From NCBI RefSeq assembly GCF_027947595.1, contig NZ_CP116257.1:310001-374000 (forward strand): 64,000 bases of DNA, given 5' to 3'. The notes under the pieces were generated by a model. It did not search any database. It was not told the DNA's origin and worked only from the letters and a program-made list of their open reading frames with translations. Positions 49,197 through 58,978 of this stretch are shown one piece after another. The stretch is from Streptomyces lienomycini (lineage in GTDB: Bacteria > Actinomycetota > Actinomycetes > Streptomycetales > Streptomycetaceae). Each line of letters begins with the position of its first letter. Within the stretch, counting starts at the first letter, position 1. The translations under genes were made by a program, and so were the position numbers.

Positions 49197-49270
49197 GCCG
49201 CCTTAGCTCAGATGGCCAGAGCAACGCACTCGTAATGCGTAGGTCTCGGGTTCGAATCCCGAAGGCGGCT
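49197..49270 (+). tRNA. tRNA-Thr (anticodon CGT)
   Basis: A 74-base tRNA. The acceptor stem GCCGCCT pairs with AGGCGGC, the anticodon arm is ACGCA-CTCGTAA-TGCGT with CGT at 49231-49233, and the T arm is TCGGG-TTCGAAT-CCCGA. CCA is not encoded. A TAGACT -10-like element lies at 49154-49159. Its 3' half is repeated at 57164-57206. Confidence 0.97.
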
Positions 49271-49271
49271 C
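49229..49271 (+). repeat. attL-like repeat (tRNA-Thr 3' half)
   Basis: 43 bases from the anticodon loop to just past the discriminator, matching 57164-57206 at 42 of 43 positions. The only difference is the C of GCG against G. This is the usual integration target of tyrosine recombinases in Streptomyces tRNA genes. Confidence 0.9.
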
Positions 49272-49277
49272 AAGGGT

Positions 49278-49309
49278 AAACCCCAGGTCAGAATTCTGAC
49301 CTGGGGTTT
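49278..49309 (+). terminator. tRNA terminator, perfect palindrome
   Basis: AAACCCCAGGTCAGAA and its exact complement, 16+16 with no loop, followed by TCTTGT. Placed 8 bases past the tRNA. A weaker version, AACCCCAG ... CTGGGGTT, follows the distal att copy at 57212-57244. Confidence 0.85.
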
Positions 49310-49363
49310 CTTGTCTGGGATGACCTTGGAATCTCGGCGAATCGGGCACCGCCCATCTGTGCG

Positions 49364-49387
49364 CGTAATGCGCAGGTCGCAGGTTTG
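49364..49387 (+). repeat. Third, diverged att-like segment
   Basis: CGTAATGCGCAGGTCGCAGGTTTG resembles the tRNA's CGTAATGCGTAGGTCTCGGGTTCG (positions 49231-49254), with about four mismatches, 133 bases further on. Could be a remnant of an earlier integration. Confidence 0.45.
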
Positions 49388-49442
49388 TTTCGTTGTCGCC
49401 TGTGAGCTTCGGCAAGGCTCTGACCTGCTGTTCTGGTGCATT

Positions 49443-50183
49443 TCAGCCCTTCGGTCGCCGCGTAGTCATTTGCTCCGGTTCCAGCCAGCGCAGGTGCGAG
49501 GACCTGCCGTCGCCACTGCCTGTGTGGTGGTCCTGCTTCTCGCCGTTCTCCCACATGGATATCAGCTCGACCATGAGGTGTGGTTCGCGTCGTCCGAAAG
49601 CCGTGGAGCTGAGAGGTGGGCGGGTGGCTGCACCTTGGAACTGGTGCCAGACGATCGCGGAGAAGGGTGAGGTGAACTCCCGGACGGCTCGGTCCAGGAC
49701 GGTCGCGATGGAGCCCGTGACGCTCTGGACGGTCCGTGTGCGGATCGCACCCATGCGTCCAGGTGGGAACAGGGCGTCCGTCGCTGCCAGCGTCGCGGAA
49801 CGGGCGACCGGTCCGACTTCGGCGAGAACGGGTGTACCGAGTCTGGCCAGGGTGCGTACCGGCCCGTTCTCGGCGTTCCCCACGTCCGGATCCCCCGACC
49901 AGGTCGGCGCGACGTACACCGTCGGCTTGCCGTCCGGGCCGGGAAGGAACCCCACGTCCACCGTCAGCTCGTCGGGACTGTCCTGAAGGATCCCACCGAG
50001 GTCGGCAAGAATGCCGGCGCTGTGGTCGATCGGGTACAGGATGGTTCCCGAGAACACGGTCGGTACGGGGTGCAGGCGGATTCGTGCTGAGGTCACGACG
50101 CCGAAGTCGCCGCCGCCGCGCAAGGCCCAGAAGAGGTCCGGGTGGGTTGCGTGAGGGCTGTCCCGCAATTCCCGGTGGATCAA
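49443..50183 (-). pseudogene. FAD-linked (BBE-type) oxidase remnant
   Basis: A 246-residue open frame that aligns with the middle of berberine-bridge-type FAD oxidases: HPDLFWALRGGGDFGVVTSARIRLHPV is the second half of the FAD-binding domain. The N-terminal FAD-linking part is missing and no upstream in-frame sequence restores it; the C-terminal BBE segment is absent as well, the frame running into unrelated residues after about 215. No ribosome site. A pseudogene or degraded fragment; some frames nearby on both strands are shadows. Confidence 0.6.
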
Positions 50184-50418
50184 GCGCGTGGCGCCCAGAC
50201 GCGGTGCGTCGCAAGGCGAAGGAGCGTCCGCATACTGGATGCATGGGGACGCTCCGACAACGTGACGAGATGCCTTGGCTGTCGTCGGGCACCCGGCGGG
50301 AAATGCGGGCCAGCCCTTAGCTTGGGGCCTTGAACATCAGTCAGCCCGGGAGTAAGTCCTTCCGCTGTTCTGAGGTCATGCCGTGCGTATGCGTGGGCGG
50401 GTGACGGCCGGCTGTGAC

Positions 50419-52029
50419 TCAACGCCTCGCAGGGACGAGGGGGTGGGTGGTCGCGGGCGTGTCCGTCTTGCACACGGTGCCGTCGGCGGGGTGTGTGCCG
50501 TGGAGGAGTGCGGCGTCAACCGCGCTGTTGACACACGAGTTGATGCCGTAGGAGCCGTGTCCGACTCCTTCACGTGTGAGCAGGACCGCGGAGTCCAGGG
50601 TCCGGGTCATGTTCTCGGCCCAGTGGTGGGGGGTGACGGGGTCCAGTCGGCCTGCGACCACCAGCGCCGGGGGCGCACCGGCGCCTGTGAGCGGCTTGGT
50701 GACGCGGTCCTTGTTCGGCGCGGGCCACCGAGCGCAGTTCAGGGCGGAGTAGGCGGCCCGGGTCCCGATCCGCTTCGCCTCAGCAACAGCCTTGGTGGCT
50801 GCGGCCTTGTGCGCGGCGATGCCGGCCGGGGTCTGCCAGTCGGCGCAGCGTACGGCGGTGTGGGTCTCGAACATCGCGGTGGGGACGGGGAAGGGGGATA
50901 CCGTGACGCTGCTCCACAGGGTGTGGAGGGGTGCGCCGTTGCCCTTCTGTGCGGCCAGCAGCGCCGAGGTCAGCAACGGCCAGGTGTTCTGGTCGCCGGC
51001 CAGGGCTCGGGTGGTCTCCAGGGCCTTGGCGCCGTCGAGTTCGCCACCCGGGGTGGCGCCCTTGGCGGGTGCGATCTTCAGAGGTTCCGCTTCCAGCGTG
51101 TCGATGAGTGTGTCGAACGCCGCCTCCGGGTCGCCTGCCCCGAACGGGCACACTGCGGCCCCTTCGGCGCGGCAGGTCTTGAACCAGGCGTTGAGGGTTC
51201 GCTCACTTGCCACGGCGACGTCGTTCTGGAAGGGGAGGGAGTTGCCGAACCACTGGTTGGTGTCGACGGGCGCGTCGAGCACCATCTGGCGGACGCGGTG
51301 GGGGAACAGGGTGGCGTACATCGGGCCGACCACGGTCCCGTAGGACAAGCCGTAGTACGTGATCTTGTCCTCGCCGAGCGCGGAACGGACCTGGTCGATG
51401 TCGCGGGCCACGTTGTCGGTGGACAGGCTGGCCAGGAACTTTTTGTTCTGGTTCTTGGCGCAGCCGTCGGTGAACGCGGCGGCATCGGCCAGCAGTCGCG
51501 GCAGAGGCTTGCCCCCGGGGATCGCCGGGTCGAAGGAGGTGCCGGCGGCGTCGGCTCGCTGCTTGTCGGTCAGGCAGCGAACGGCCTGCGATTGGCCGAC
51601 GCCGCGCGGGTCCATCGCGATGACGTCGAATCTGGCGAGCACAGCGGGCGAGAAAGCGCCCGGAGTACCGGCTGTCTTGGGCAGATTACGCAGTGTCTCG
51701 GTGGCGGCGACCCCGGGTCCGCCCGGGTTGAAGACCAGGCTGCCGATGCGCTGGTCGGGATCGGTGGCCCGGTGCCGCATGACCGCGAGCGGGATCTGCG
51801 CGCCCTCGGGGTCGGTGTATTCCTGCGGCACCTTGATCGTGGCGCATTCCAGGTTCTTCCCGCACGCGCTCCACGTGAGCGGGTCAGGGGAGGGGGCCGG
51901 TGCCGACGCGCCCGTTGCGGACGTGCTGCGCAGCCCTGAGGCCCCGGACGAGCACCCCGTCAGGACCATGAGGGCTGCGGCGAACGCAGCCCCGTACCTG
52001 GCGGCGGCCCGTGGCCTCAACTGGATCAT
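50419..52029 (-). CDS. Secreted tripeptidyl-aminopeptidase-like lipoprotein (island copy 1)
   Basis: A 536-residue alpha/beta-hydrolase related to the gene at 47454. Lipobox VLTGC near residue 25; NPGGPGVAATE oxyanion loop; YGLSYGTVVG with nucleophile Ser 229; AGRLDPVTPHH and GVGHGSYG supply Asp and His. Cysteines in the C-terminal region match the family. Its substrate is likely peptides released outside the cell. AGGAAAG precedes the ATG at 52029. No regulator is adjacent on its own strand; the unknown membrane protein gene lies 115 bp upstream on the same strand. Confidence 0.88.
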   Translation of the reverse strand: MIQLRPRAAARYGAAFAAALMVLTGCSSGASGLRSTSATGASAPAPSPDPLTWSACGKNLECATIKVPQEYTDPEGAQIPLAVMRHRATDPDQRIGSLVFNPGGPGVAATETLRNLPKTAGTPGAFSPAVLARFDVIAMDPRGVGQSQAVRCLTDKQRADAAGTSFDPAIPGGKPLPRLLADAAAFTDGCAKNQNKKFLASLSTDNVARDIDQVRSALGEDKITYYGLSYGTVVGPMYATLFPHRVRQMVLDAPVDTNQWFGNSLPFQNDVAVASERTLNAWFKTCRAEGAAVCPFGAGDPEAAFDTLIDTLEAEPLKIAPAKGATPGGELDGAKALETTRALAGDQNTWPLLTSALLAAQKGNGAPLHTLWSSVTVSPFPVPTAMFETHTAVRCADWQTPAGIAAHKAAATKAVAEAKRIGTRAAYSALNCARWPAPNKDRVTKPLTGAGAPPALVVAGRLDPVTPHHWAENMTRTLDSAVLLTREGVGHGSYGINSCVNSAVDAALLHGTHPADGTVCKTDTPATTHPLVPARR

Positions 52030-52143
52030 GATGATCTTCCTTTCGTCCTAACCTGTGCCGTGCCCTGCAGCCCGGCTGCGCCGGTCGCGCGAGAGCCCGG
52101 CCGAAGAGGGCTGACGTGGTCGCGCCTTCCTCGCTTCGATGAG

Positions 52144-52791
52144 TCAGCGACCGGCCGCGTCGAGCAGGGAGGAGTACCGCAGGCGGAGTGCGCGCTCCAT
52201 GCTCGCCAGAACGGCCCCGCCTCCCAGTGCGAGGTTCAGCCAGATCGGCAGGTGTATCGGCGATACGAAGGTTCCGACCCGCTGTGTGACGGGGGGGATG
52301 TGAGAGACGGGTTCAGCGAGCTGCAGCAGGTTCAGGCCCACACCGATGACCAGCAGCAACACCGACCCGAAGGCGACCGCCCGGCTCAGTCCCGGATGGC
52401 GGACACCGAAGCGCGCCCTCCGCCCCTCCGCGGAGGCGGGGTCGGGCGTGAGCTGAGACGGCTGTCCGCCCAAGGGGCGATAGTGGCAGCGCTTGATGCC
52501 GTAGCTGCTCATCGCCACCTCGATGACGCCCCCGTCGACAGGGAGGAGCGCGGGCAGTTTCGACTCGGCCACATGCCTGCCGTCCAGGAACAGATGCGCC
52601 CGGATCCTGCTGTTGTCCAACCGCGCCCAATGCCGTACGTCGACGGAGTACAGGCGGGCGGGCCCGTCGGCAGCGGGTAGCCGTAGCCAGAACAGGGAGC
52701 GAAAGGGGAGCTGCCACCAGCGGAATCGCTGCAGTTCCCGGCCGTCTCCCGGCTTCAGGCGCTTCGATGCAGCCCACTGTTTCCACGCCAT
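52144..52791 (-). CDS. Unknown membrane protein, divergent from TetR
   Basis: A 215-residue protein I do not recognise. The first 140 residues are soluble, beta-rich and basic (FRWWQLPFRSLFWLRL; VEVAM-like strands), then two transmembrane helices at about 147-167 and 185-205. The ATG at 52791 is chosen because AAGGGG precedes it; a GTG at 52812 is in frame. The TetR operator lies 40-90 bp upstream, so this gene is the most likely target of that repressor, together with the peptidase behind it. Confidence 0.7.
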   Translation of the reverse strand: MAWKQWAASKRLKPGDGRELQRFRWWQLPFRSLFWLRLPAADGPARLYSVDVRHWARLDNSRIRAHLFLDGRHVAESKLPALLPVDGGVIEVAMSSYGIKRCHYRPLGGQPSQLTPDPASAEGRRARFGVRHPGLSRAVAFGSVLLLVIGVGLNLLQLAEPVSHIPPVTQRVGTFVSPIHLPIWLNLALGGGAVLASMERALRLRYSSLLDAAGR

Positions 52792-52827
52792 GCTCCGCGC
52801 ACCCCTTCGCACTCGGCCGCACCCTCA

Positions 52828-52881
52828 CTAGTACGGCGTGTTAGAAGGACGCTAGCACGCTGTACTAGTACGGCGTGCTAG
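52828..52881. promoter_or_regulatory. TetR-type operator, two direct half-palindromic sites
   Basis: CTAGTACGGCGTGTTAG (52828-52844) and CTAGTACGGCGTGCTAG (52865-52881) are 37 bp apart. The right copy is half of a 30-bp inverted repeat with arms CTAGCACGC (52852-52860) and GCGTGCTAG (52873-52881), centred on TACTAGTA. It sits between the divergent TetR and membrane-protein starts. Confidence 0.75.
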
Positions 52882-52933
52882 TACAGTTGAGAAAGGTGGG
52901 AGAAGTGGTGGGAGAAGTAAAGGAGAGCGGAGC

Positions 52934-53545
52934 ATGGAAACACGGGAAAAGATCCTCCAGGCCGCTGCGGAGATGATCGCCGAGGACATGACGGCCAAGC
53001 TGAGCGTGCGCGCGGTCGCCGCGCGTGCGGGAGTGAGCACCGGATCGCTGAGATTCCACTTCCCCACCCAGCGCGCCCTGCAGGACAGCCTGCTCGCACG
53101 GATCTACGACAACCTGCTGCCCGGCGACCCGATCCGCGACCGGACGCTGCCGCCCCACGAACGGCTGCTGAACTGCCTGCGGCAGGTTCTCGCACCGCTC
53201 GGCACCAATAAGGACGCGCGAACCGCATGGAGCACGATCTACCGGAACTTCATCGAACCCGAGCCGACCGGACCGGTACGCGCCGCATACCTTGCCCATG
53301 AGCGGGAGGCGGAGCGCCTGGTCGAACACTGGCTGGCTGTGCTCGCCGGCGAAGGCGCACTGCCCCCGGGAGACCACACCCGCAACGTCAGATTCCTCCT
53401 CACCGTCCTCAACGGACTCTCGGTCGAACGCGCCCTGCCCACCCGCGAATCCGTCCTCATCGCCGAGACCGAGACCCTCAACGCCGCGGTCGACCACGTC
53501 CTCTCCACCGGACTCGCACCGTCCGCCGGGCCGACTCGGCCGTGA
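52934..53545 (+). CDS. TetR-family transcriptional regulator
   Basis: A 203-residue TetR protein. The N-terminal HTH is ILQAAAEMIAEDMTAKLSVRAVAARAGVSTGSLRFHF (read in two blocks, residues 7-45), typical of the family; the C-terminal 140 residues are a helical ligand pocket with no recognised subfamily. The ATG at 52934 is preceded by GGAG 8 bases upstream, within a purine-rich leader. It should repress itself and the divergent membrane protein by binding the repeat at 52828-52881; ligand unknown. Confidence 0.87.
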   Translation: METREKILQAAAEMIAEDMTAKLSVRAVAARAGVSTGSLRFHFPTQRALQDSLLARIYDNLLPGDPIRDRTLPPHERLLNCLRQVLAPLGTNKDARTAWSTIYRNFIEPEPTGPVRAAYLAHEREAERLVEHWLAVLAGEGALPPGDHTRNVRFLLTVLNGLSVERALPTRESVLIAETETLNAAVDHVLSTGLAPSAGPTRP

Positions 53546-53726
53546 ACCGGACCAGCCCCCCCCTTGGCGCCGAGGCGCGAGACCACGGTGCGACGGGCAC
53601 CGGCGTGGACAGACCGGCATGGTCGGCGGCTATCCGCCCGCCGGGCAGTTGCCGGACTCGAACTCTCGATGGCGACCGCAGAGACACGCAAAGACGCGGC
53701 ACCAGACGGCGAGGGAGATTTCGATC

Positions 53727-54076
53727 ATGGCGTGGAGCACCCGGGAGATGGCGGAGCTGGCCGGCGTCAGCCTCAGGGCCGTACGCCATTGCCACGACAT
53801 CCGATTGCTTGAAGAGCCGGAGCGTCGCTCCAACGGATACAAGCAGTACGGCGTCAGCGTCTCGTGCCTTACGTTCGACGCCTCCGGGCCCGCCGTCCCG
53901 GGCTCAGCGATCTCGCTTCAGACGCCCCGCGCGGCCGACAGCACACTGCCCGCACCATCGGCGAAGCCATCACCGATCTCTACAATCCAGCCCAGGTGGA
54001 CGTCATGAAGCGGCTCGACGGGCTCCTGTCCGACATGGATGCCCACGGCGATCGTTCTCAGAGCGCCGTTTCGTGA
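53727..54076 (+). pseudogene. MerR-family regulator remnant
   Basis: Starts MAWSTREMAELAGVSLRAVRH with an intact MerR HTH through GYKQYGVS (residue 45), closely matching the intact MerR at 54271-55023. The frame then shifts: VRRLRARRPGLSDLAS continues the match in another frame from about 53870, the effector-domain middle is deleted, and the tail YNPAQVDVMKRLDGLL (about 53980-54030) matches the C-terminus HNRAHLDVLRRVHTIL of the intact copy. GAGGGAG precedes the ATG. A broken duplicate of that gene. Confidence 0.8.
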
Positions 54077-54270
54077 CTCTATGGGCGGATCCCAGTGTGC
54101 ACCTGATGGTGTGACGCGTGGACGACGGAGTCGTTGCCACGACCGCTCCCGCTTGGACACCAGCGAACCGTAGTCCGTGCGGTCCACTGCCGCATGTGCC
54201 TCGTTTCTGTGAGCCGGTACGACGCTGCGCGGACGACACGAATGCGGCGTGTGACTCCCCGGCGCCGCCC

Positions 54271-55023
54271 TCACTGCTGGGTGCCGTTGCTCTCGCTTCC
54301 CGAGGTGTCGTTCTCGACGAGGATGGTGTGGACGCGCCGCAGCACGTCGAGGTGGGCGCGGTTGTGGAACTCGACCAGTGCGTGCACGGCGACCGATTCC
54401 GCAACGGCCCTTTCCCGGTGCGAGGCCAGCCCGAGGTCGGCCAGAGCAGGGTGGGCCCGGTGCTGCCGGCGGACTTCGGGTGCCATGCGCTCGGCCAGCC
54501 GCTGCCGTACGTCGTCGGGAGCGTTCTCGTCGAGCGTCGCGAACTCCGCATCCAGGACGCCGCGAGGTCCCGAAAGCTGCTCTTGGAGGGCGGCCATCGC
54601 TTCGGGTGTGAGGATGCTGGAGTAGGCCATCAGCAAGGACCGCTGGGTTTCGGGCAGGTCGTCGGCGAGTGTCTTGAGGCCAGGGGGCATGTCGAGCGCG
54701 GTCCGGTTGTCCCTGATGGCAGCCAGTTCCCGCCGCATCCGCTGCCGGCGTTCGATGTCCGCCGCGAGTTCGGCGTCCAGGTCCCGGAGGATCCGCCGCG
54801 CCTTCTCGTCACCGCTCTCCACCGAAGGGACATCCGCGAGGGCAACTCCGAGGTCGGTCAGTCTGCGGATACGCAGCAGGCGCACCAGATGGCTGACGCC
54901 ATAGCGCTTGTAGCCGTTGGACGCTCGCTCCGGCTCATCCAGCAAGCCGATCTCGTGGTAGTGACGGACGGCCTTGGCCGTCGTCCCCGCGAGTTCCGCC
55001 AGCTGACGGGTACTCCACGCCAC
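54271..55023 (-). CDS. MerR-family transcriptional regulator
   Basis: A 250-residue MerR regulator. VAWSTRQLAELAGTTAKAVRHYHEIGLLDEP (blocks from residue 1) and GYKRYGVSHLVRLLRIRRL make the winged HTH and linker; the remaining 170 residues are a helical effector region with no metal-binding cysteines, so a drug, peptide or other organic inducer is likelier than a metal. GTG 55023 has GGAGAGGGGG upstream; the frame is open to 55200 but that would cross the promoter. Divergent from the peptidase gene and sharing MerR-type operators with it. Confidence 0.86.
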   Translation of the reverse strand: MAWSTRQLAELAGTTAKAVRHYHEIGLLDEPERASNGYKRYGVSHLVRLLRIRRLTDLGVALADVPSVESGDEKARRILRDLDAELAADIERRQRMRRELAAIRDNRTALDMPPGLKTLADDLPETQRSLLMAYSSILTPEAMAALQEQLSGPRGVLDAEFATLDENAPDDVRQRLAERMAPEVRRQHRAHPALADLGLASHRERAVAESVAVHALVEFHNRAHLDVLRRVHTILVENDTSGSESNGTQQ

Positions 55024-55058
55024 CAGGAGCCCCCTCTCCAGGATCATGCCCGGCCGCC

Positions 55059-55089
55059 ATTGAAAACCCTGCCCCTGGGGCACGGTCAA
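55059..55089 (-). promoter_or_regulatory. MerR-type promoter for merR gene
   Basis: On the minus strand TTGACC (55089-55084), a 19-bp spacer holding GTGCCCCAGGGGCAGGG, then TTCAAT (55064-55059). A 19-bp spacer with a dyad operator is the hallmark of MerR-activated promoters. Confidence 0.7.
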
Positions 55090-55115
55090 CTCCGGCCGTT
55101 TCCGGCGGCCAGTCA

Positions 55116-55146
55116 TTGACCTTGCCCCAGGGGCAGGGAGTGGGCT
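55116..55146 (+). promoter_or_regulatory. MerR-type promoter for peptidase gene
   Basis: TTGACC (55116-55121), then the near-identical operator TTGCCCCAGGGGCAGGG, and a weak -10 position at 55141-55146 after a 19-bp spacer. It faces away from the copy at 55059-55089. The two operators differ by one base in the left arm. Confidence 0.65.
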
Positions 55147-55188
55147 GGTCGCGACCACGCCCCACACACAGGTATGCGGAGACTGGAC

Positions 55189-56700
55189 ATGAAAAGGCAC
55201 AGCAGTGTCGGCCGAAGCCTGGCCCTCCTGGCGGTCATCGGCCTGGGCTCGTCAGTGACCACTCTGCCCGCCGCCGCCGACGACACGAAAACGCCTCAGA
55301 CGAAGTGGGGCCAGTGCCCCGACGACATCGTGGCAGAAGCCGCTCCGACCGTACTGCAGTGCGCCGCAGTGTCCGTGCCGCTGGACTACGCCCACTCGGA
55401 CGGCGAACAGATCGACCTCACCGTCTCCCGGCTGGCCGCCGCCGACCCGGACAAGCGGCGCGGCATTCTCATGCTCAACCCGGGCGGCCCCGGCGGATCC
55501 GGGCTGGCGCTGTCCGCACTGCTGGTGGCCCAAGGCCTGCCCAGCAGCGTCACCGACCGCTACGACCTGATCGGCATGGACACCCGTGGGATCGGTCATT
55601 CCACACCGGTCAGTTGCGGCTTCACCACCGACAGCCCCTACTACTCCAACATCCCGCCCTACGCGGTCGACGACGCCGCGGTCACCGCACAGGCCAAGGT
55701 CGCCGAGCAGGCAGCCAAGCAGTGCGCGGACAACGACGACGACGGCCGGCTGCGTCACCTCACCACCGCGAACACCGCCCGCGACCTGGACCGGATCCGG
55801 GCCGCGCTCGGTGAAAAGAAGACCAGCTACCTGGGCTACTCCTACGGCACGGCACTCGGCGCCGCCTACGCGTCGATGTTCCCCGAGCGCTCCGACCGAA
55901 TGGTGCTCGACAGCAACATCGGAGACACCCACCTCAACCGCGACGCCATGCGCCGCTACGCGCTCGGCATGGAACAGACCCTGCCGGACTTCGCGAAGTG
56001 GGCCGCCAGCCGCCACGACAGCTACGGCCTGGGCCGCACACCCAGCCAGGTCCGGGCGTCCTACCTCACCATCGCCGGCAGACTCGACGAGGTTCCCGTC
56101 GCAGGGATCGACGGGCCCCTCTTCCGCCTCCTGACATTCGGCCACCTCTTCAAGCAGACGCAGTACCCCGCGCTGGCGCAGACCTGGCAGACGCTGCTCG
56201 AAGGCGACGAGGCCACGGTCCGTGACCTGCGAGCCCTCCAGCAGGAAGGGACGGACGGGCCGGTATCGCCGACCGACAACGCCCTGACCGTGTTCCTCGC
56301 CGTCACCTGCAACGACGTCGAGTGGCCCGAGGACGTCAACACCTACCGTCGGGGCGTCGCCGAGGACCGTGAGCGCTACCCGCTGTACGGCGCCGCCACC
56401 GCCAACATCACACCCTGCGCCTTCTGGCCGCACGCCCCCGCCGAACCGCCCGTGGAGGTCGACACCGAAGGCCCGCGCAACGTACTGCTCCTGCAAAACC
56501 GCAGGGACGCGTCGACCCCGCACGTGGGCGGGGAGATGCTGCGCCAGAAGTTCGGCGACCGCGCCCGGCTGGTCAGCGTCGACGACAGCGGGCACGGCGT
56601 CTACGTACTGGGCAAGAACTCCTGCGCGCTGAACACCACCACCCGCTACCTCGTCGAGGGCAAGATGCCGACGAAGGACACCCTCTGCCGCGCGGATTGA
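55189..56700 (+). CDS. Secreted tripeptidyl-aminopeptidase-like hydrolase (island copy 2)
   Basis: A 503-residue alpha/beta-hydrolase. The N-terminus MKRHSSVGRSLALLAVIGLG...AAAD is a Sec signal peptide with an AxA cleavage site and no lipobox, so unlike its relatives it should be freely secreted. NPGGPGGSGLALS, GYSYGTALGAAYA with Ser 218, LQNRRDASTPH (Asp) and DSGHGVYVLG (His) make the catalytic set. ATG 55189 has GGAG at 55177-55180, 8 bases upstream; ATG 55174 is also in frame. Controlled by the divergent MerR. Confidence 0.88.
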   Translation: MKRHSSVGRSLALLAVIGLGSSVTTLPAAADDTKTPQTKWGQCPDDIVAEAAPTVLQCAAVSVPLDYAHSDGEQIDLTVSRLAAADPDKRRGILMLNPGGPGGSGLALSALLVAQGLPSSVTDRYDLIGMDTRGIGHSTPVSCGFTTDSPYYSNIPPYAVDDAAVTAQAKVAEQAAKQCADNDDDGRLRHLTTANTARDLDRIRAALGEKKTSYLGYSYGTALGAAYASMFPERSDRMVLDSNIGDTHLNRDAMRRYALGMEQTLPDFAKWAASRHDSYGLGRTPSQVRASYLTIAGRLDEVPVAGIDGPLFRLLTFGHLFKQTQYPALAQTWQTLLEGDEATVRDLRALQQEGTDGPVSPTDNALTVFLAVTCNDVEWPEDVNTYRRGVAEDRERYPLYGAATANITPCAFWPHAPAEPPVEVDTEGPRNVLLLQNRRDASTPHVGGEMLRQKFGDRARLVSVDDSGHGVYVLGKNSCALNTTTRYLVEGKMPTKDTLCRAD

Positions 56701-57287
56701 CCACCGGACCCGCGCCGCCGGCACCCCGTCCGCCGCCGACATCTTCCGGCGTACCCGTCGACTGGTTCGCCGCGTCAGCAGTGCGCCCTTCCGGAGCGGG
56801 ATCAGGGCCGGGATCAGGGCCGGTGAATGGTGTAGCAGCGCATCGGAGACCCAGCGCCCTTGGTACCAGGGTCCCGATGCGTCGCCCGGGACGGTTCCTG
56901 CGAAGGTGCCGGGCGGCCGGGCGTTGTGGGGAAGGCACAGTCGACCTAGTGCCTTCGGTCCCATGTGCGCGGTCTTCCGTGAGAGCCGCGAGGTCGGACG
57001 GGGATGAGCGGCCGATCGACTTCGCCGGTGGACGGGCGGTGGACAGACGCCTTTGGACGGTGCGGCACGAGATGGCACGGGCCGAGCTGGTGCAGATGCT
57101 CTGACCAGGAAAAATGTCACGAGACGGTACGGCAGGGCATTCCCCGGCATGATCGCTCACGGTCTCGTAATGGGTAGGTCTCGGGTTCGAATCCCGAAGG
57201 CGGCTCTATCGAACCCCAGGCCAGGTAGCTAGTGATCTGGGGTTGGGCAGGCCGGACAGGTCGGTGGCAGTCCGGCCCGTACGCCGG
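56701..57287. other. Non-coding end of the island
   Basis: About 590 bp with no supported gene. It contains the distal att copy (57164-57206) and a weak hairpin after it. Short frames (for example 56697-57104 +) have shadow-like composition. No integrase remnant is recognisable. Confidence 0.5.
57164..57206 (+). repeat. attR-like repeat (displaced tRNA-Thr 3' end)
   Basis: Second copy of the tRNA-Thr anticodon-to-acceptor half; 42 of 43 bases match 49229-49271. The 5' half of a tRNA is absent here. Downstream, AACCCCAG (57212-57219) and CTGGGGTT (57237-57244) form a terminator-like hairpin, so this was probably the original gene end. Confidence 0.9.
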
Positions 57288-58978
57288 TCACTTCGCGTCC
57301 GCGTAGCACTCCACCACCGCCGTAGTGAACGGGAACCGCACCGGCGTCGTCCCGAACGTCAGCCGTCCCGCCAGTTCGGCCGCGTCCCGGATCGCCGCGA
57401 CGACGGTGTCGGCCTCCTCCTCGGGACAGTGCACGATCACCTCGTCGTGCTGGAAGAAGACCAGCTCGGCCGCCAGGTCCGCGCAGGTCTGCCGCAGGGC
57501 CGCGAGCAGGAGCAGCGTCCAGTCGGCGGCGCTGCCCTGGACGACGAAGTTGCGGGCGAAGCGGCCCCGCGCGCGGGCGTCGGTCGACGCGTAGCCCGGC
57601 ACCCACTCGTGCGGGCGGCCCGGGGCGTCCGGGGCGTCGTCCTGCGGCAGGCCCGCCTCCTCGGCGCCGTCGGCCGCGCCGCCGCGGGCGGGCAGGTGCG
57701 GCCCAGCCAGGTGCGCACGAGCCGGCCCTCCTCGCCCGCGCGGGCCGCGTCGTCGACGTACGCCACCGCGCGGGGGAAGCGGCGTCGCAGAGCGGCGAGG
57801 TTCTTGAGGCCGTCGCCGGAGGTCTGGCCGTACACCGCGCCGAGCACGGCGAGCTTGGCCTGGGCGCGGTCGCCGGAGAAGGCGCGGTCGGAGACCGCCT
57901 GGTAGAGGTCGCTCTCCCGGCCGGCCACCTCCATCAGACCGGGGTCGCGGGAGATCGCCGCCAGCACGCGCGGCTCCATCTGGTCGGCGTCGGCGACGAC
58001 CAGCCGCCAGCCCGGGTCGGCCACGACGGCCCGCCGGATCACCTTGGGGATCTGCAGCCCGCCCCCGCCGTTGGTCACCCAGCGCCCGGTGACGGTGCCG
58101 CCCGCCAGGAACTCGGGGCGGAACCGTCCGTCGCGCACCCAGTCCTGGAGCCAGGACCAGCCGTGGGCGACCCAGATCCGGTACAGCCTCTTGTACTCGA
58201 TGAGGGGCTTCACGGCCGGGTGGTCGAGCGACTCCAGCTCCCAGCGGCGGGTGGAGCCGACCTTGACGCCCGCCTGCCCGAAGGCCCTGACCACGTCGGC
58301 GGGCAGGTCGGGCCGCACCCGGCGGCCGAAGGCGGCGGACACCTCCTCGGCCAGCTCGGCCAGGCGGCGCGGCTCGCCCCCGCCCGCGTACCGCTCGCCC
58401 AGCAGGTCGTGCAGCACCTCGCGGTGCACGTCGGCCCGCCAGGGCAGCCCCGCGCGGTTCATCTCGGCGGCCACCAGCATCCCCGCCGACTCGGCGGCCG
58501 TCAGCAGGCGCAGTCGGCCGGGGTGCGCCGAACGGTCGTGGCGGCGCTGCTGCTCGGCGTAGACGGCGAGCAGGTCGGACAGGGGGAGGTGGACGGCCTG
58601 GGGTTCGAACAGCGGGGACTGCGCGCCGGGCTCGGCGGAGCGCTGCGGTGGGTCGGGCGGGACGGGGCCGCCGTGCAGCCGGGCCAGGGCGGCCGCGGCC
58701 GAGTGCGGCTCCCCGTACCTCCCCTCGTGGCCGAGCAGGAGCGTTTCGGCGGCTTCCACGTCGTAGCACCGCTCCACCCGCACCCCCTCGGCGAGCAGGC
58801 GCGGTGCGATCTCGGCGGTGGACCGCCACACCCAGCGCGTGACCTCGGGTCTGCTGCGCACCGCCCCGGCGAGGTCGGGCTCCCGCCGCACCGGCCCGGC
58901 GGGCAGCCCGTCGGGGCCGAGGGCGGCGACCTCCACGCCGCCGCCCTCGGCCACCGCGAGCGCGCACCTCCGGGTCAT
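57288..58978 (-). pseudogene. Family-A DNA polymerase (3'-5' exonuclease-like/polymerase), frameshifted
   Basis: A DNA polymerase I-like protein (about 563 residues) without the 5' nuclease. MTRRCALAVAEGG starts at 58978; polymerase motifs read in this frame include VVADADQMEPRVLAAIS (motif A) and RRFPRAVAYVDDAA. At about 57677-57700, in a CCCGCCCGCGG stretch, one base is missing: the frame changes and the C-terminal half (GYASTDARARGRFARNFVVQGSAADW, then FFQHDEVIVHCPE, motif C) continues in the next frame to 57288. Everything else is intact, so it is either a fresh mutation or a sequencing error. The exonuclease Asp/Glu residues are degenerate, and it resembles the second polA of Streptomyces. 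Confidence 0.85.

What the first reader, a model, noticed from the sequence alone, without database searches (positions are those of the whole stretch)
49229..57206. Decayed genomic island at tRNA-Thr with 43-base direct repeats
The 3' half of tRNA-Thr(CGT) is duplicated at 57164-57206 with one mismatch, bounding 7.9 kb that lacks any integrase, while both copies are followed by a CCCCAGG/CTGGGG terminator-like hairpin. From memory of S. coelicolor, the genes left (peptidase, holB) and right (polA-like, rpsN) of the island lie about a hundred genes apart there, which would make this tRNA a hotspot with very different inserts. Similarity extending beyond the core into the terminator is unusual for an att site.
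Basis: partly seen in the sequence, partly recalled or inferred. Interest (0 to 1): 0.72.

Follow-up and report, generated by a model that had tools for sequence, protein, structure and literature searches.

The report
Integrase-less gene cassettes stacked at tRNA-Thr
The 8-kb stretch behind this tRNA gene looks like a worn-down copy of a mobile gene cassette that carries attachment sites but no recombinase; related cassettes stand in rows behind the same tRNA in many Streptomyces and may borrow the enzyme of a rarer element.

Summary
The repeat is real: 43 bp of tRNA-Thr(CGT) recur at 57164-57206 with one mismatch. In 39 of 40 loci measured, tRNA and polA-like gene lie 2.6-117 kb apart; 18 of 40 congener loci hold extra core copies. 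The island is decayed: strain DH41 has a 17.7-kb version at the same place, SID9727 a 20.7-kb version whose main cargo pieces are 89-93% identical although its left host flank is 76-78%. But the missing integrase is not the decay: no integrase was found in those versions either. The island belongs to a family ("type A") with a conserved attachment site: CCGGTGG repeats 11 bp apart at -139/-128, core, terminator, an anticodon-stem-like palindrome at about +129, and in 31 of 55 named right ends the repeats again near +250. A pattern for its inner end finds 118 stretches in four genera. 0 of 21 complete type A segments hold an integrase, against 13 of 28 others; fragments occur in 2 of 55 incomplete ones. 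The same repeats stand beside one integrase clade, 5 of 5 located. I infer non-autonomous cassettes moved by that helper; no movement was observed.

The parts
49197..49271 (+). tRNA-Thr(CGT), integration target
   Evidence: ARAGORN
49229..49271 (+). attachment core next to the tRNA (attL side), 43 bp, starts in the anticodon loop
   Evidence: distal copies diverge from the tRNA exactly here
49278..49309 (+). terminator hairpin between core and right arm
   Evidence: conserved after the core in type A right ends
49357..49378 (+). second anticodon-stem-like palindrome (pseudo-core), about 129 bp after core start
   Evidence: 55 of 113 named copies have it at offset 127-131 with <=7 mismatches; best of 440 control windows is 9
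49475..49479 (+). remnant CCGGT of the right-arm repeat pair; the rest is lost at a junction (49479/49480) relative to DH41, SID9727 and S. globisporus
   Evidence: alignment; blastn
49443..50123 (-). truncated FAD/berberine-bridge-type oxidoreductase (471 and 474 aa in SID9727 and S. globisporus)
50419..52029 (-). TAP-like alpha/beta hydrolase (cargo)
   Evidence: Pfam PF08386/PF00561; PADLOC model C3a206
52144..52791 (-). small protein of unknown function (cargo), no Pfam match
52934..53545 (+). TetR-type regulator (cargo)
   Evidence: 91% to the SID9727 copy
53724..53858 (+). remnant of a MerR gene that is 239-246 aa long in DH41 and SID9727
54271..55047 (-). MerR-type regulator (cargo)
55174..56700 (+). 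second TAP-like alpha/beta hydrolase (cargo), 88% to DH41 and SID9727
57025..57163 (+). left attachment arm of type A: CCGGTGGAC at 57025-57033 (-139), degenerate GCGGTGGAC at 57036-57044 (-128), GCTCTGACCAGG at 57098-57109
   Evidence: read; family conservation
57164..57206 (+). distal core (attR side), one mismatch to the tRNA
57212..57243 (+). terminator-like hairpin after the distal core (weak)

Best explanation
The island is a decayed member of a family of non-autonomous integrative cassettes ("type A", my name). Each is a few to about 20 kb of unrelated cargo with a fixed attachment site at its ends: a left arm with two CCGGTGG repeats 11 bp apart, a 43-bp core equal to the 3' part of tRNA-Thr, a terminator, a palindromic anticodon-stem mimic and, often, a right arm with the same repeats. 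It carries no recombinase of its own. A tyrosine integrase of one clade ("type E"), found behind the same tRNA and the same arm repeats on larger elements, is inferred to bind the repeats and to integrate and excise the cassettes in trans. Insertion at the tRNA restores its 3' half and supplies a terminator, and would push earlier cassettes outward, so rows build up. In this genome the cassette has lost about 5 kb in four deletions compared with DH41 and SID9727, among them its right-arm repeats, and has a changed base in the distal core; it is probably fixed. SHOWN by sequence: repeat, hotspot, family ends, absence of integrase in the complete segments read, decay, transfer between lineages, switch of homology at the att site, co-variation of arm repeats and integrase clade. 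INFERRED: binding, helper action in trans, order of insertion, immobility.
For: Ends: 28 distal copies in congeners fall into a few left-arm types; at the loosest clustering the window's goes with 9 others. In 116 named copies the 140 bp left of the core carry 0.97-1.57 bits per position in 10-bp bins, background 0.10; the last 8 bp were part of the search pattern. Pseudo-core: 55 of 113, against a best of 9 mismatches in 440 control windows. Arm repeats: 123 of 216 copies (some genomes counted twice, tRNA-side copies included) have CCGGTGG within 180 bp left of the core, 109 of these exactly at -139 and/or -128; background 0.077 per 180 bp. Right-arm repeats at +238 to +264 in 31 of 55 named type A right ends, 0 of 54 in a control window. 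No integrase: 0 of 21 segments with type A ends on both sides, 0 of 28 when 7 with a diverged right end are added, against 13 of 28 (13 of 21) others; a PF00589 scan of 10 whole genomes has no hit inside a type A segment; Pfam on 16 of the 19 genes called in the SID9727 element finds no site-specific recombinase, one DDE transposase. Mobility: see SID9727. Homology switch: of 68 left-sided alignments that come within 100 bp of the core none ends before it and 47 end at +20 to +100; 123 of 146 right-sided ones begin at -150 to -130; 9 span both sides. Helper: 5 of 5 E-clade integrases (>=84% to G057) with a located core have the repeat at +143 and/or +154 (G057, L152; G010; G288, G325); no integrase of clades B, C or D does. 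In G057 and G288 the far copy has the type A left arm.
Against: No excision, circle or trans action was observed. Integrase fragments do occur in incomplete type A stretches: 2 of 55 right ends (L126, 94 aa at 45%; L142, 100 aa at 86%), against 12 of 58 other ends, and L226 has an E-like fragment upstream of a type A left arm. Most type A genomes lack an E-like integrase: 4 of 40, against 3 of 255 without type A (p 0.008; only 2 DNA and 4 protein candidates scored per genome, weak and partial matches included); this genome has none at that cut-off. In G325 the integrase is about 8 kb from the core, and G154 (77%) lies in a stretch without a tRNA-Thr core. Alignments share loci (49 on each side), all loci were picked by the arm pattern, and the conserved arm itself fixes where right-sided alignments begin. 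RecA could exchange cassettes between such repeated ends. Segments with E-type ends but no integrase exist (G021, G031), which looks like ordinary decay.
Confidence: 0.64

Rival explanations
1. Ordinary cis-mobilizable elements: each cassette is an independently decayed ICE/AICE that lost its integrase and moves only when a functional neighbour excises with it.
For: The CIME concept fits elements with att sites and no integrase (PMC5704250 passages). Segments with E-type ends but no integrase exist (G021, G031). Integrase fragments occur in L126, L142, L140 and L226.
Against: 0 of 21 complete segments with type A ends on both sides keep a detectable remnant. The pseudo-core right end was not seen beside any intact integrase. 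The left end occurs in four genera.
Confidence: 0.32
2. Homologous recombination: the cassettes travel on plasmids and are exchanged by RecA between their repeated ends; no recombinase acts on them now.
For: Long repeated ends; type A-like left arms on large linear plasmids.
Against: RecA does not need repeats 11 bp apart at fixed distances on both sides of the core, nor a pseudo-core at a fixed place. Extra copies in the contiguous congener loci are all in direct orientation.
Confidence: 0.15
3. One reading: an ordinary island whose integrase was lost by decay in this strain.
For: The island has lost about 5 kb compared with DH41 and SID9727.
Against: Those longer copies keep the lost stretches and show no integrase.
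Confidence: 0.07
4. A resident integrase coded elsewhere on the chromosome, not the E type, works on the cassettes.
For: The ten genomes scanned, all with type A copies, have 3 to 21 PF00589 matches each; most type A genomes lack an E-like integrase.
Against: Among integrases at this site only the E clade shares the arm repeats; integrases elsewhere were not compared arm by arm.
Confidence: 0.12

Closest known systems
CIME (cis-mobilizable element) and accretion at tRNA genes
   Same: att sites kept, no integration or transfer genes, stacked with other elements at one site (PMC5704250, PMC9513070; passages)
   Different: here a family shares a dedicated attachment module, across four genera, with no integrase remnant in 21 of 21 complete segments (fragments in 2 of 55 incomplete ones)
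ssrA genomic islands of Dehalococcoides
   Same: tandem islands behind one RNA gene, bounded by its 3' end; 16 with and 15 without the integration module (PMC3146451; passages)
   Different: serine recombinase and 20-bp repeat there; a separate end structure for the islands without the module was not seen in the passages
CALIN cassette arrays of integrons; MITEs
   Same: non-autonomous units moved in trans by a relative's recombinase or transposase (PMC11389934; passages)
   Different: ends here are a tRNA core with arms; units are several kb; the proposed helper is a phage-type integrase
AICEs of the pSE211 type, which use tRNA-Thr
   Same: target tRNA-Thr, tyrosine integrase in the family (PMC3218068; passages)
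   Different: no integrase in the window's island or its longer relatives; no rep or tra family among the 16 of 19 SID9727 genes sent to Pfam

Membership tests
CIME | flanked by attL and attR | tested here: met
CIME | no integration or transfer genes | tested here: met
   (3 of 19 genes of the longer relative not sent to Pfam)
CIME | derived by decay from an ICE or IME with the same ends | tested here: inconclusive
   E elements share the left arm and repeats but not the pseudo-core right end; some fragments of integrase occur
CIME | moves in cis with a functional neighbour | not testable with these tools
   needs excision assays
AICE | own integrase, Rep and TraB | tested here: not met
IME | own integrase | tested here: not met
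integron / CALIN | cassettes bounded by attC sites and moved by IntI | not tested
   attC and IntI were not searched for; the ends seen are tRNA-Thr cores with CCGGTGG arms
tRNA-gene genomic island | 3' part of the tRNA duplicated at the far end, variable cargo, differently filled sites in relatives | tested here: met

The most novel reading that the evidence does not exclude
Streptomycetes possess an integron-like system in which a tRNA-Thr gene is the anchor and integrase-less cassettes of defence, toxin-antitoxin, Rhs and metabolic genes, each with a self-contained attachment site that repairs the tRNA and brings its terminator, are captured, stacked and exchanged in trans by the integrase of a rare helper element; the anticodon-stem mimic is a functional second site that tunes recombination.
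Probability: 0.43. Interest if true: 0.8.

Novelty: new variant of a known kind. Interest (0 to 1): 0.62.

Why it matters
It would explain how rows of small islands without a recombinase arise and spread in Streptomyces, gives a searchable signature for such cassettes and a candidate helper integrase, and offers arrays whose cargo (by resemblance Wadjet-like, OLD/UvrD-like, VapBC and Rhs genes) can be mined for defence systems. It also shows that 'no integrase' should not by itself be read as decay.

Tried and rejected
Idea that the two island hydrolases are duplicates of the peptidase left of the tRNA: they are only 30-36% identical to it. Idea that the ORF 56697-57104 is an integrase tail: no similar frame stood before the other distal copies in the listing. 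Idea that a relative shows an empty site: the shortest (G026, 2.6 kb from tRNA to the polA-like alignment) has no second core but holds, by my reading of the frames, an AraC-type and a glycosyltransferase gene, so it is at best near-empty. First integrase queries failed because three loci were read in the wrong frame; redone. Phage records: no match. Nine IMG/VR contigs hold the core; only L234 was read. Serine recombinases were not scanned genome-wide. Not followed: other tRNA-Thr isoacceptors (one case, G044).
Full report
WHAT WAS CLAIMED AND CHECKED. The window is bases 310001-374000 of a single-contig 7.86-Mb genome. tRNA-Thr(CGT) lies at 49197-49271. Its last 43 bases recur at 57164-57206 with one mismatch; 100 shuffles give no match at up to 3 mismatches. 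Both copies are followed by a CCCCAGG/CTGGGG hairpin, strong on the left (z -5.3), weak on the right (z -1.3). Between them lie a truncated oxidoreductase, two TAP-like hydrolases, a small protein, one TetR and one MerR gene and a MerR remnant. None of the genome's PF00589 matches lies in the window. G+C falls to 66-70% in most of the island against 71-80% left of it.

HOTSPOT. I located the right-flank polA-like gene in 56 of 59 genomes and holB in 59 of 59, and fetched the stretch between the flanks, or parts of it, for 40 of the 58 congeners. In 40 loci with both ends measured, window included, 39 have the same order, with 2.6 to 117 kb from tRNA start to the polA-like alignment (median 26 kb); one is rearranged. 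18 of 40 congener loci held with a tRNA have one or more extra core copies within 10 mismatches; all extra copies in the contiguous loci are in direct orientation. The window's island genes were not found at the locus in these congeners, apart from weak hydrolase hits, almost all of them the peptidase left of the tRNA. In 12 of the 40 an integrase frame or its pieces begins within 1.6 kb of the tRNA, convergent with it; G040 keeps a fragment. So the hotspot claim holds.

THE ENDS. Lining up 28 distal copies shows a conserved stretch left of the core that falls into a few types; at the loosest clustering the window's type (A) goes with nine others. A pattern of 8 bases of its inner end plus 21 of the core matched 118 stretches of named genomes of Streptomyces, Actinacidiphila, Streptacidiphilus and Kitasatospora, several per genome in places; some are the same genomes as unnamed ones read before. 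In 116 of them the 140 bp left of the core carry 0.97-1.57 bits per position in 10-bp bins, background 0.10. Right of the core come the terminator and, in 55 of 113 copies with enough sequence, a palindrome like the tRNA's anticodon stem at offset 127-131 (43 of 55 at 129) with 7 or fewer mismatches; the best of 440 control windows has 9. CCGGTGG repeats 11 bp apart stand left of the core: 123 of 216 copies have at least one within 180 bp, 109 of them exactly at -139 and/or -128; background 0.077. On the right, 31 of 55 named type A ends have one at +238 to +264, 0 of 54 in a control window. This looks like a tyrosine-integrase attP with arm-type sites; that reading is inference.

NO INTEGRASE. 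Between consecutive cores I classified 49 complete segments by simple rules on both ends. Of 21 with type A ends on both sides (3.7-17.9 kb, median 8.8 kb, the window's included) none has an integrase or remnant by tblastn with the site's integrases; of the 28 others 13 have (p 0.0002; segments are not independent). Adding the 7 segments with a type A left arm and an unclassified right end, DH41 and SID9727 among them, gives 0 of 28 against 13 of 21; this grouping was made after seeing the table. A PF00589 scan of ten whole genomes, 3 to 21 matches each, has none inside a type A segment; the integrase of G103 and the fragment of G119 lie in neighbouring segments. Against this: in the incomplete 8-kb stretches, 2 of 55 type A right ends have an integrase fragment downstream (L126, L142), 12 of 58 other ends have one, and L226 has an E-like fragment upstream of its type A left arm.

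THE WINDOW'S ISLAND IS A DECAYED COPY. Streptomyces sp. DH41 has the same locus (flanks 89-90%) with a 17.7-kb version; SID9727 has a 20.7-kb version whose four longest shared cargo pieces are 89-93% identical (two short ones 84-86%) while its left flank is 76-78%; in S. globisporus JCM 4378 the left part of the cassette (91-92%) stands behind another type A copy, not next to the tRNA. The window lacks stretches near 49479, 50145 and 53858 that all three have, and one near 56762 that DH41 and SID9727 have: about 5.3 kb against DH41. The first cuts the right-arm repeats after CCGGT. A further block at 52852-52907 in DH41 (4.4 kb) and SID9727 (7.5 kb) is missing in S. globisporus too and is more likely an insertion there. 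The SID9727 version codes for an FAD oxidase, a PapA-like transferase, DUF3159, GPP34, hydrolases, SDR, TetR, MerR, a glyoxalase-like protein and a DDE transposase, and no site-specific recombinase in the 16 of 19 called genes sent to Pfam. Cargo more alike than the flank shows transfer between lineages.

EXCHANGE AT THE ATT SITE. Among the 118 loci, 68 alignments shared on the left and reaching within 100 bp of the core end at or after it (0 before, 47 at +20 to +100, the rest up to +300); 146 shared on the right begin at -250 to -110, 123 of them at -150 to -130, the outer edge of the left arm; 9 span both sides. The loci were chosen by the arm, so the arm itself sets that edge, and alignments are not independent (49 loci on each side). 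Example: one S. scabiei junction shares its left side with S. regalis (90%) and its right side with S. adelaidensis (94%).

WHO MOVES THEM. Among integrases at this site the CCGGTGG repeats occur beside one clade, E (at least 84% to G057): G057, L152, G010 (two in-frame stops), G288 and G325, 5 of 5 with a located core; the integrase is 0.65 to about 8 kb from it. Clade B has GCGTGAGC repeats instead, clades C and D neither. In G057 (77 kb) and G288 (about 54 kb from the tRNA to the copy found; the middle was not read) the far end is a type A left arm. The G057 element has a MobA/VirD2-type relaxase and a type ISP restriction system among nine proteins tested. In 295 genomes of the genus, 40 have a type A arm match (weak ones included) and 7 an E-like integrase of at least 77% (two of them partial); 4 of the 40 have both, 3 of 255 only the integrase (p 0.008, lower bounds). 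Hence the helper model, at moderate confidence. The left arm also occurs at tRNA-Thr(TGT) in G044 with a core matched to that tRNA, and on large linear plasmids beside genes annotated as TIGR02680 and DUF2399 proteins, PIN/VapB, UvrA and Rhs, a possible vehicle.

ARRAYS AND CARGO. S. guryensis has eight cores in a row over 128 kb, one of them the tRNA itself, all on one strand; Actinacidiphila soli has 13 matches in all. Recurrent neighbours of type A ends are Rhs-like proteins (16 loci), a VapBC-like pair (9), a second PIN-like and antitoxin-like pair (9 and 8) and Uma2-like proteins (8); these names are my reading of the sequences, as are OLD, UvrD and Wadjet for cargo.

KNOWN OR NEW. Accretion and CIMEs are known, also in Streptomyces (PMC9513070, PMC8369830, PMC5704250; passages). 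Tandem ssrA islands with and without integration module are known in Dehalococcoides (PMC3146451, passages). tRNA-Thr is a known AICE and ICE target (PMC3218068, PMC9513070, passages). Cassette arrays without integrase and MITEs are discussed as hitchers (PMC11389934, passages). Seven searches of the paper library (listings) showed no title or abstract start describing this family; subscription papers are mostly not held. I file it as a new variant of a known kind: it works like a non-autonomous integrative element, and membership of CIME is left open because descent by decay was not settled.

Noticed in passing
57288-58967 (-): The polA-like gene seems to change frame near 57640 in this genome, while the DH41 copy is one 563-aa frame: a frameshift or an assembly error.
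   Followed up: no
L281 (G044): A type A left arm at tRNA-Thr(TGT), with a core that matches that isoacceptor on both sides: the family may switch targets by changing its core.
   Followed up: partly
L263, L264: Type A-like arms on large linear Streptomyces plasmids next to genes annotated as TIGR02680/DUF2399, PIN/VapB, UvrA and Rhs; the core is only partly matched.
   Followed up: partly
57246-57288 and G026: Eleven congeners have a glycosyltransferase-like gene between the hotspot and polA; the window lacks it there (best own hits elsewhere, 65% and 59%).
   Followed up: partly
50419-52029 and 55174-56700: Both TAP-like hydrolases match PADLOC candidate-defence model C3a206 (E 7.5e-85 and 1.9e-62); whether they act in defence is unknown.
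   Followed up: no
G040 (L047, L048): Two distal copies each have a further degenerate core-like stretch (10 mismatches) 179 bp on.
   Followed up: no
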